A DNA stretch of 64,000 nucleotides, from assembly GCA_019636655.1 (NCBI GenBank), contig JAHBXB010000004.1:1-64000 (forward strand), given 5' to 3'. The position numbers and the translations under genes are program-made. Below are positions 22,813 to 26,814 of this stretch, piece after piece. The notes beneath the pieces are model-generated. The model made no database searches. It was not told the DNA's origin and saw nothing but the letters and a program-made list of their open reading frames with translations. How positions within the stretch are numbered: the first letter of the stretch is position 1; each line of letters starts with the position of its first letter. This DNA is from Phycisphaeraceae bacterium. Lineage in GTDB: Bacteria; Planctomycetota; Phycisphaerae; Phycisphaerales; UBA1924.

Positions 22813-25800
22813 CTACGTGGCCGCGTGCTCCCGGTTCGCCGCCGGCTTGACCGACACCTCCGCCCCCGAGCGTCGCTCCGCCTCGGCGCGGAAGTCCTGC
22901 ATCGCCGCCACTCCCCAGCCGTGGCCCCGCACCGCCCGGATCGCCCGCACCGCCGCCAGGGCCCCGGTCGCCGTCGTGATCATCGGGACCCCCAGCCGCA
23001 CCGTCGCCGCGCGGATCTTCCCCTCGTCGGTCTGCCACCCTGTCTTCGTCGGCGTGTTGATCACCAGGTGCACCTTGCCGTCGGACATGAGATCGATCAC
23101 GTTCGGCCTCGCCCCCGCGCCGATCTTCTGCAGCACCGTGGTTGGGACGCCCGCGCCGGCGATGACATCGGCGGTCCCGCCCGTTGCGTACACGCCGAAC
23201 CCCAGTTCGTGCAACTCTTTGGCGACCTGAACAATCGCCGCCTTGTCCGAATCCCGCACCGACAGAAACACGCTGCCGCTCGCGGGCAGCTGAATCCCAG
23301 CACCCATCTGGCTCTTGGCGAAGGCAATCGGCAGGCTCCGATCGATCCCCATAACCTCGCCGGTTGATCGCATCTCCGGTCCCAGCACGACGTCCACGCC
23401 CGGGAACTTGCCGAAGGGGAAGACGCTCTCCTTGACCGCGTACGCGCCGGTGTCCGGCACCTCGCGGGTCCCCAGGTCCGCGAGGCTGCGGCCCATCATC
23501 ACCTTCGCTGCGATCCGCGGCCACTGCACGTGCTTGGCTTTGCCGACGAACGGCGCCGTGCGCGATGCACGCGGGTTCACCTCCAGGATGTAGATCCGGT
23601 CCCCTCCGGTCACCATCCCGTTCGCGCCGGGCTGCTGCTGCTTGATCGCCATCTGCACGTTCATCAGCCCGCGCACCCGCAGTTCCCGCGCCAGGTCGCG
23701 GCTGATCCGCTTGATCTCCTCGACAGTCTCCGCGGCGAGCGACCACGGCGGGATCGTGCACGCCGAGTCCCCCGAGTGGATCCCCGCCTGCTCGATGTGC
23801 TCCATCACGCCGCAGACCAGCGCCGTGCCCGGCTCGCCGGGGCCGCCGCCGAAGTCCGCCACGACGTCGACATCCACCTCCGTCGCGTCGTCCAGGAACT
23901 TGTCGATCAGCACCGGGGCGTTCTCGAGCTCCGAGATGTCGACGGCGTTGAGCATGTAGTGCCGCAGCGCCCTCTCGTCGGGGCAGATCTCCATGCCGCG
24001 CCCGCCCAGCACGTACGAGGGGCGGACCAGCACGGGGTACCCGATGCGCCCCGCGATCTCGACGGCCTGCTCCAGCGTCCGAGCAGTCCCGCTCGGCGGC
24101 TTGCTCAGCCCCAGTTTCTCCAGCAGCGCGTCGAACCGCTTGCGATCCTCGGCGAGATCGATCGAGTCCACGCTGGTGCCGATGATCGGGGCGCCGGCCT
24201 GCTCCAGCCCGTGCGCCAGGTTCAGCGGCGTCTGGCCGCCAAACTGGACGATCAGGCCGTGGACCAAGCCGCCTTGAAGTTGCAGCCATGAATCAATGTT
24301 CGACTCGAGTGTTGGAGCAACATCGAGCTTGACATCTCTCCAGCGGCCAGAAGGCCCCGGCTGATTGACAAACGAAGCGAGCCTTGGTTCGTCGCCGGAA
24401 CTGAACGCGATGTTCCAGACACGGCCCGAGTCGTCAACCCCTTCCAACACCGCCGTCTTGATCTCCTGCCCGTCCAATTCTTGGTAACCGCGACCTGCTG
24501 CGAAGATCGCGAGCCTCCGAATCGCCACCGCCTGGAAGGCTGCGCGAATCTGATTCATGAAATCTGATGGCAACCTGCAGATTGCGTCGCCCTTCCAAGG
24601 GGTAGACAGCCTGCTCGGATCGTGTCTGAACGTGTCGTCTACAAGGAGGCTGCGGCCGTCAGTGTGAGTGAAATCGACTACCTCCACCGGCGTGCGGGAG
24701 GTCATTCGATTCAGCCGCTCCACAACATTCAGCACATCCTCCAGCGTCAGCGGCTCGAAGAACAGCAGGTCGCTCGTGTCGTAGTCCGTGCTGACCGTCT
24801 CCGGGTTTGAGTTGATCATCACCGACTCGAAGCCGAGTTCCTTCGCCGCGAACGCCGCGTGGCAGCAGCAGTAGTCGAACTCGATCCCCTGGCCGATGCG
24901 GTTGGGTCCGCCGCCGAGGATGATCACCTTCTTCCTGTCGCTGACGCGGATCTCGTCGTCCGCCGCGGGCTCTTTGTCCGTGCCCACCGCCGCGGCGGCG
25001 GTCTCGTAGGTGCTGTAGTAGTACGGCGTCCGCGCCTCGAACTCCGCGGCGCACGTGTCGACCAGTTTGTACACCGGCTCGACCCCCAGCGCCTGCCGCC
25101 GCCGGCGCACCCGCAGGATCGTGTCCGTCGAGATCGTCCCCAGGTACAGGTTCGCCAGCTGCGCATCGCTGTACCCCATCTGCTTCGCCTCGAACAGCAC
25201 CCCCGGCGGCACCTCGTCCAGGCTCGCAAAGCCGCACAGCACATCCTCGAACTCGACGAGCCTCCTGATCTGGTCGAGGAAGAACAGGTCGACCTTGCAG
25301 AGCGAGCGGATCCGCTCCAGGCTCCACCCCATCTTCATCGCGTAGCGGATGTAGTACAGCCGCCCCTGGCTGGGCACCGCCAGCTTGCGCGTGAGCTTCT
25401 CCTCGGGGATCGGCCACTCCAGCGCCTCCCCGTCGGCCGTCTTAAGCCCCGTGTCGCTCGCCGCGACCGCGGTCCCCGGGTCGAGCATCAACTGGCTCCC
25501 CTCCACCGCGCGCACCGCCGCCAGCCACTTGTCGTTGCGGTCCAGCCCCAGGCCGAACCGCTTGACCTCCATCGACCGGATCGCCTTCTGCAGGCTCTCC
25601 ACGAACGTCCGTCCGATTGCCATCGCCTCGCCGACGCTCTTCATCTGCGTCGTCAGCGTCTCGTCCGCCTCGGGGAACTTCTCGAAGGTCCACCGCGGCA
25701 TCTTCGTGACGACGTAGTCGATCGCGGGCTCGAAGCACGCGCTCGTGGTCCCCGTGATGTCGTTCTTCAGTTCGTCCAGCGTGTAGCCCACCGCCAGCTT

Positions 25801-26814
25801 CGCCGCGATCTTCGCGATCGGAAACCCCGTCGCCTTGCTCGCCAGCGCGCTGGAGCGGGAGACGCGCGGGTTCATCTCAACGACCACCATCTCGAACGGC
25901 TTCTTCCCGTCCGGGCCCGGCGCCGGATCGGGATTCACCGCGAACTGCACGTTGCTCCCGCCCGTCTCGACGCCCACCTCGCGCATGATCGCGAAGGCCG
26001 CGTCGCGCATCGCCTGGTATTCCTTGTCCGTCAGCGTCAGGATCGGCGCCACCGTGATCGAGTCCCCCGTGTGCACCCCCATTGGGTCGATGTTCTCGAT
26101 CCCGCACACCACCACGCAGTTGTCGGCGCGGTCGCGGACGACCTCCAGCTCGTACTCCTTCCACCCCAGCAGGCTCTTGTCGATCTGCACCTGCCCGATC
26201 ATCGACAGCCGCAGCCCGCGGGTCACGATCTCCTCGAACTCCTCGCGGTTGTATGCGATCCCGCCCCCGCTCCCCCCCAGCGTGAACGCCGGCCGGATGA
26301 TCGCCGGCAGCCCGATCGTCCCCAGGAACTCCAGCGCCTCGGCCTGCGTCGTCACCGTCCGGCACGGCGGCAGCTTCAGCCCCACCTTCTCGCATACCTC
26401 CTTGAACGCCTGCCGGTCCTCCGCCCGCCGGATCGCCTCGCGGCTGGCGCCGATCATCTCGATCCCGTGCCGCGCCAGCACCCCGCTGTCAAACAGGGCG
26501 CACGCCGTGTTCAGCGCCGTCTGCCCGCCCAGCGTCGGCAGCAGCGCGTGGATCGGGTCGCCGATCTCCTTCTGCTTCTGGATGATCTTCTCGACCGCCT
26601 CCGGCGTGATCGGCTCGATGTACGTCCGATCCGAAAACTCCGGATCGGTCATGATCGTCGCCGGGTTCGAGTTCACCAGCACGATCCGGTACCCCTCCGC
26701 CCGCAGCGACTTGCACGCCTGCGTCCCCGAATAGTCGAACTCGCACCCCTGCCCGATGACAATGGGACCCGACCCGATGATCAGGATCGTCTTGATGTCG
26801 GTGCGCTTGGGCAT
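22813..26814 (-). CDS. carB: carbamoyl-phosphate synthase large subunit with an internal insertion
   Basis: Makes carbamoyl phosphate for pyrimidines and arginine, working with the CarA glutaminase. The 1333-residue product begins [20 protein letters not shown], has two carboxyphosphate/ATP-grasp halves ([40 protein letters not shown]), an oligomerisation region, and a C-terminal MGS-like allosteric domain ([20 protein letters not shown]). Family length is about 1070-1110. Much of the excess is one insertion at about residues 703-849 (bases 24270-24708), between [16 protein letters not shown] and [16 protein letters not shown], where homologues have only a short turn. The insert uses relaxed, lower-GC codons unlike the rest of the gene. 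It lacks intein ends (no N-terminal Cys/Ser, no C-terminal HN). AAGGAG precedes the ATG. Confidence 0.95.

What the first reader, a model, noticed from the sequence alone, without database searches (positions are those of the whole stretch)
24270..24708. About 146-residue, compositionally foreign insertion inside CarB
At residues ~703-849, between ...[14 protein letters not shown] and [13 protein letters not shown], where CarB homologues have a short turn, there is an in-frame insert with relaxed, lower-GC codons. It is not an intein (no splice-junction residues). The insert contains [20 protein letters not shown] and [20 protein letters not shown], which I cannot assign. It may be a lineage-specific domain regulating pyrimidine flux, or a recently gained segment.
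Basis: partly seen in the sequence, partly recalled or inferred. Interest (0 to 1): 0.6.

Follow-up and report, generated by a model that had tools for sequence, protein, structure and literature searches.

The report
Swappable extra domain in CarB enzyme
A core metabolic enzyme (carbamoyl-phosphate synthetase, CarB) in a family of planctomycete bacteria carries, at one fixed loop, an extra protein domain that is present, absent or replaced by a very different one even between close relatives, which is unusual for a housekeeping gene; what the domain does is unknown.

Summary
CarB (window 22813-26814, minus; 1333 aa) has an in-frame extra segment of 149 residues (24262-24708). At this site 62 of 66 parsed CarBs from named records have only 15 or 19 residues. 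Its third-position GC is 0.67 against 0.94 in the rest of the gene.

It is not an isolated oddity. Of 130 family genomes with a readable site, 20 (14 of 62 genera) have 111-226 residues there. Eleven of 19 such segments show kinship to the others beyond every shuffled and real-protein control, so many belong to one orphan domain; strong profile matches were found only in CarB of this family. It turns over fast: CarBs 97-98% identical carry very different segments (18-27% identity) or none. Relatives that keep one version show purifying selection (dN/dS 0.16-0.43, four pairs).

Best reading: a real, optional, exchangeable accessory domain, probably replaced by homologous recombination through the conserved flanks. 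Its function is inferred only; nothing found supports pyrimidine-flux control. No intein or known-family match; no usable fold model.

The parts
22813..26814 (-). carB, carbamoyl-phosphate synthetase large subunit, 1333 aa, the only CarB match in this genome at E <= 1e-50
   Evidence: ORF list; Pfam CPSase_L_D1, L_D2, L_D3, MGS; one match in own genome; one CarA match elsewhere in the genome
24262..24708 (-). in-frame accessory segment, CarB residues 703-851
   Evidence: absent from most CarBs examined; E. coli residues 631 and 636 lie on either side
24262..24627 (-). part matched by the profile of the family of inserts
   Evidence: the genome search with A1, E 4.9e-21 (the window row is in that profile); leave-one-out scores 34.9 bits and, edges stripped, 30.2
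24709..24786 (-). conserved left flank, residues 677-702 ([26 protein letters not shown]), ending in the helix before the insert
   Evidence: alignments A2, A3; helix 691-702 in the model
24217..24261 (-). conserved right flank, residues 852-866 ([15 protein letters not shown]), with the strand after the insert
   Evidence: alignments A2, A3; strand 851-855 in the model

Best explanation
The segment is a real, translated accessory domain on the helix-strand loop of the pre-ATP-grasp part of CarB's second half. Most of the comparable segments belong to one orphan domain family that, as far as searched, is confined to CarB of one family of Phycisphaerales-type planctomycetes. Shown: same site, kinship of at least 11 of 19 segments, presence/absence and replacement between near-identical CarBs, purifying selection where a version is shared. 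Inferred: versions are exchanged mainly by homologous recombination through the conserved flanks, so that alleles, empty ones included, circulate in the family. Inferred and weaker: since no residue is invariant and the conserved core of CarB is intact, the domain acts as an interaction surface on CPSase rather than as an enzyme, and its variety is kept up by a changing partner or antagonist or by weak constraint.
For: Site lengths of 131 CarB loci from 130 family genomes: 20 of at least 100 residues, 19 of 35-99, 92 under 35, range 17-226; 37 loci of other families of the order: 20-32. Leave-one-out profiles: 14 of 19 inserts beat all 500 shuffles and all 630 real-protein fragments; with shared edge residues stripped, 11 of 19 beat both. 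Window and G200 inserts match directly (E 5e-18) although their CarBs are far apart (distance 0.87). Swaps: G138/G139 CarB 97% identical, inserts 27%; G117/G118 97%, inserts 18%; G140 (98% to G138) and G056 (97% to G117 and G118) have 36 residues instead. Flank DNA is 81-97% identical over the first 40 codons on either side in all 13 pairs compared. Carrier state needs at least 17 changes for 20 carriers among 132 rows; of 11 carrier genera with more than one readable member, 10 hold both states. Insert score against CarB distance over 171 pairs: rho -0.01, P 0.87 (pairs not independent). dN/dS of the insert in four pairs: 0.29, 0.43, 0.29, 0.16, with insert dS not far from flank dS. carB of G138 and G140 is a mosaic, one near-identical tract starting about 120 nt from the insert. 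Of 243 orthologous ORF pairs of G138 and G139, four have a divergent internal window, and only CarB has over 100 residues on both sides.
Against: Eight of 19 inserts do not beat every control once edges are removed: G117 and G167 score like random sequence there (G167 has weak pairwise matches to G200, E 0.002-0.003), G202 is borderline but 73% identical to G016, the rest borderline. Some inserts may therefore be unrelated. On the tree only 65 of 129 inner branches are well supported; against the mid-size group the carriers need 11 changes, of which well-supported branches force 6, and 72 of 500 shuffles were as low. Direct signs of recombination come from one pair. No closely similar insert was seen in distant CarBs (best 32%), so no donor is seen. 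The insert tree has three groups at 80 or more. Folds are unreliable (mean pLDDT 35 alone; 23-41 in the CarB model). Function was not tested at all.
Confidence: 0.62

Rival explanations
1. Tolerated filler: the loop accepts any in-frame DNA, and inserts are neutral passengers that only must not harm folding.
For: The same loop also holds 19 segments of 35-62 residues, several of which look like translated repeats; 2 of 9 of these that I tested (G140, G127) exceed all 20 codon shuffles for 12-mers shared with G138/G139 DNA. Low third-position GC suggests weak codon selection. Eight of 19 domain-size inserts are not individually shown to be kin.
Against: Eleven of 19 domain-size inserts are kin beyond all controls, and dN/dS is 0.16-0.43 in the four pairs that share one; random filler would show neither.
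Confidence: 0.2
2. Old domain of the family, inherited vertically and lost many times, with long-lived allele lineages and little recombination.
For: All carriers found lie in one family; g17 keeps one version in three species with insert dS like flank dS.
Against: G117/G118 and G138/G139 differ almost wholly in the insert with flank dS of 0.32-1.35, which needs replacement and not loss; at least 17 changes on the tree.
Confidence: 0.12
3. Selfish site-specific element that carries its own means of moving into this loop.
For: One fixed site, sharp borders, presence/absence between close relatives.
Against: No invariant residues; no nuclease, intein or transposase family among the matches; no repeat pair at the two borders among those listed in the window (25 of 32 inverted pairs shown); single copy in the genome.
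Confidence: 0.04
4. Allosteric domain that tunes pyrimidine/arginine flux.
For: It sits in the second, carbamoyl-phosphate-forming half of CPSase (the role of that half is general knowledge).
Against: Close relatives do without it or have a very different one; no ligand-binding family reaches a cut-off.
Confidence: 0.02

Closest known systems
Lineage-specific insertional domains of bacterial RNA polymerase (BEAN, HABAS; PMC11515920, abstract and section list seen)
   Same: Extra domain inserted in an essential enzyme, lineage-restricted
   Different: The abstract says their distribution follows the Tree of Life; here presence and version change between species with 97-98% identical CarB
Rickettsia palindromic elements (PMC10969869, passages seen)
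   Same: In-frame insertions in genes, including metabolic ones, kept translatable
   Different: Those are about 150 bp, in many genes, palindromic; this is one gene, one site, over 100 residues, without border repeats
Flagellin region of extreme diversity (PMC7018530, start of abstract in a search listing)
   Same: Conserved part next to a region of extreme diversity in one protein
   Different: Flagellin is surface-exposed, CarB a cytoplasmic metabolic enzyme (general knowledge)

Membership tests
CarB (carbamoyl-phosphate synthetase large subunit) | CPSase L-chain domains D1, D2, D3 and MGS domain | tested here: met
   Pfam above cut-offs
CarB (carbamoyl-phosphate synthetase large subunit) | catalytic activity with the insert in place | not testable with these tools
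   one CarB and one CarA match in the genome make it likely
Intein | Hint/intein domain match | tested here: not met
   no such Pfam family to E 1, none in NCBIfam (to E 5, to E 0.1)
Intein | splice-junction residues (Cys/Ser/Thr at the start, His-Asn then Cys/Ser/Thr at the end; recalled) | tested here: not met
   borders read directly: ERLN-RMTS and [10 protein letters not shown]
PSD2 (DUF1585) | score above the curated cut-off | tested here: not met
   16.2 bits against 25.8, E 0.0085; matched by 1 of 19 members
Rickettsia-palindromic-element-like insertion | same element in several genes | tested here: not met
   single copy by protein and DNA (short DNA matches of 15-32 bases ignored); three weak profile hits outside CarB in 163 genomes judged chance
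Family of CarB inserts defined here | leave-one-out profile score above all controls, same site in CarB | tested here: met
   window insert 30.2 bits, best control 9.9

The most novel reading that the evidence does not exclude
A cytoplasmic housekeeping enzyme carries an exchangeable recognition cassette: allelic domains, including empty ones, circulate among species by recombination and are kept diverse by a biotic partner or antagonist (for example a phage protein or a toxin that meets CPSase), much as surface antigens are.
Probability: 0.17. Interest if true: 0.85.

Novelty: new variant of a known kind. Interest (0 to 1): 0.58.

Why it matters
Inserted domains in core enzymes are often read as stable lineage markers. 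Here one is present, absent or replaced between species whose enzyme is otherwise 97-98% identical, yet conserved where shared. That gives a natural experiment on why an essential enzyme would need an exchangeable domain, and a caution against using this part of CarB as a marker in this group.

Tried and rejected
Known families: Pfam, NCBIfam and PHROGs give only weak single-member hits, none above a curated cut-off where I saw one; PADLOC none; PDB profile best E 0.17. RNA element: Rfam matches all below gathering scores. Phage, plasmid or viral source: none in phages, one E 0.2 match in plasmids judged chance, none in viral contigs. Genome contigs with the insert alone: none; with flanks, 80 CarBs kept of at least 589, 66 parsed, none with a domain-size insert. 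Profile hits outside CarB (L204, L205, L207, L328) judged chance from low scores and unlike or antisense frames. The weak hits (L002-L006) were not pursued. The first event finder saw no event, not even CarB's; one search replaced it. Origin of mid-size segments from repeats stays a lead: 2 of 9 tested exceeded all shuffles, against DNA of other species. Fold search not run, because neither model of the insert is reliable.

Rows dropped before counts: of 163 family genomes, 130 are in the length table; 4 had no CarB match at E <= 1e-50, 28 with fragmentary or very divergent CarB matches were not fetched, and G159 is cut by a contig end. Of the order's other families one fetched copy (L086) did not parse and G099 was not fetched. 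G201 (run of N inside its insert) was left out of the profiles; its length of 148 includes the N run. Lengths for G055 and G132 were read by eye and entered by hand. L048 was misparsed and corrected. G140's CarB is cut by a contig end.

Full report
What is there. The window codes on the minus strand (22813-26814) for a 1333-residue CarB with the expected domains. Residues 703-851 are an extra in-frame segment; E. coli CarB residues 631 and 636 lie on either side of the place. In 66 of 80 named CarB records where I could parse the site (the 80 were the best of at least 589 stretches), the stretch between the EDV and FGGQT anchors is 15-33 residues long, and 15 or 19 in 62 of 66. The segment has relaxed codons: third-position GC 0.67 against 0.94. 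The genome shows one CarB at E <= 1e-50 and one CarA, so this enzyme is presumably the working one.

Relatives. The insert as a protein finds only itself in its own genome, and as DNA only itself and short chance matches. In 100 relatives it gave nothing convincing (best E 0.004), although five of those genomes (G005, G016, G046, G053, G060) later proved to carry segments at this site: a single sequence is too weak a probe. Searching with the whole CarB told more. I fetched CarB from the order and from the window's family and measured the site. Of 131 loci from 130 family genomes, 20 have at least 100 residues between the anchors, 19 have 35-99, and 92 fewer than 35. In other families of the order 37 loci range from 20 to 32. 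The 20 carriers fall in 14 of 62 genera. Ten of these genera also hold a readable member without a domain-size segment; of the other four, three have one readable genome and one (g17) has it in all three.

One family of domains. Nineteen of the 20 segments were compared by leave-one-out profiles. With edges kept, 14 of 19 beat all 500 shuffles and all 630 fragments of real proteins. With shared edge residues stripped, 11 of 19 beat both sets. The window insert is among the strongest; its nearest kin is G200 (32% identity, E 5e-18), whose CarB is not close (distance 0.87). G117 and G167 score like random sequence, and six others are borderline, though G202 is 73% identical to G016 and both match G108 (E 1e-7 to 3e-6). 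The profile was searched in 163 family genomes, 301 of the order and 392 of the phylum (overlapping sets; 11-28 candidates scored in most genomes); strong matches lie only in CarB of this family. As the profile was built from those inserts, the information is in the absence elsewhere, and very diverged kin could be missed. Four weak matches outside CarB were inspected and look like chance. No known family fits.

Turnover. On a CarB tree made without the insert (quick method, 65 of 129 inner branches well supported), carrier state needs at least 17 changes for 20 carriers among 132 rows; measured against the mid-size group alone, carriers need 11, of which well-supported branches force 6. CarBs of G138 and G139 are 97% identical but their inserts 27%; G117 and G118 are 97% and 18%; G140 (98% to G138, its CarB cut by a contig end) and G056 (97% to G117 and G118) have 36 residues instead. 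Flank DNA is 81-97% identical over the first 40 codons on either side in all 13 pairs compared; in G138/G139 the right flank then falls to 74-82% before rising again. Over 171 pairs of inserts, similarity is unrelated to CarB distance (rho -0.01). By contrast, G016, G202 and G201 share one version, and G138 and G141 another: insert dS is not far from flank dS and dN/dS is 0.16-0.43 over the four pairs (NG86, rough where dS exceeds 1). So the segment is translated and constrained while it stays, and replaced at other times. Between G138 and G140 carB is a mosaic of near-identical and diverged tracts, while the DNA upstream of carB is diverged; this fits homologous recombination within carB.

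How unusual. In 400 kb around carB of G138 and G139, 243 orthologous ORF pairs at 70% identity or more (106,903 residues, stop-to-stop frames) have four divergent internal windows; only CarB has over 100 residues on both sides, the other three being shorter or one-sided. This covers about a tenth of the genome.

Structure. Alone, the insert gives no reliable model (mean pLDDT 35). In a model of residues 1-1195 with 30 rows the CarB core is largely confident and the insert is not (23-41), lying between helix 691-702 and strand 851-855. Both models suggest a long helix, two or three strands and a last helix, at low confidence.

Where the window comes from.

Literature. Searches aimed at an insert in CarB or a variable insert in a housekeeping protein (listings of 1 of 1, 10 of 23, 1 of 2 and 1 of 1 papers seen) returned nothing on a variable insert in CarB; only open-licence papers are held. 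Searches were for comparison. What I saw of each compared paper is given in its field.

Verdict. A genuine, lineage-restricted, exchangeable accessory domain. What it does is open; recognition of a changing partner is the boldest reading that the data allow, tolerated filler the main sober rival.

Noticed in passing
CarB linker between its halves, G050 (L093) and G008 (L048): A second spot, near the start of the second half, has repeat-like insertions in some relatives (translations).
   Followed up: no
family genomes G001, G011, G015, G021, G025, G026, G042, G045, G136, G156, G161: Their best CarB match is far weaker (E about 1e-104 to 1e-118) than in relatives, as if they carry a different or split CarB.
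   Followed up: no
G029 and G097: Each has two CarB-like genes on different contigs.
   Followed up: no
L038 (G060): The longest insert, 226 residues, may hold two units; only its second half was used in the family alignment.
   Followed up: partly
G138 versus G139, ORFs A_53946 and A_251740: Two other conserved proteins differ by internal insertions of some 30-60 residues.
   Followed up: no
several mid-size inserts, e.g. L116, L126, L124, L177: Peptides such as RHSATPPLRHSATSS look like translated DNA repeats placed in the same CarB loop.
   Followed up: partly
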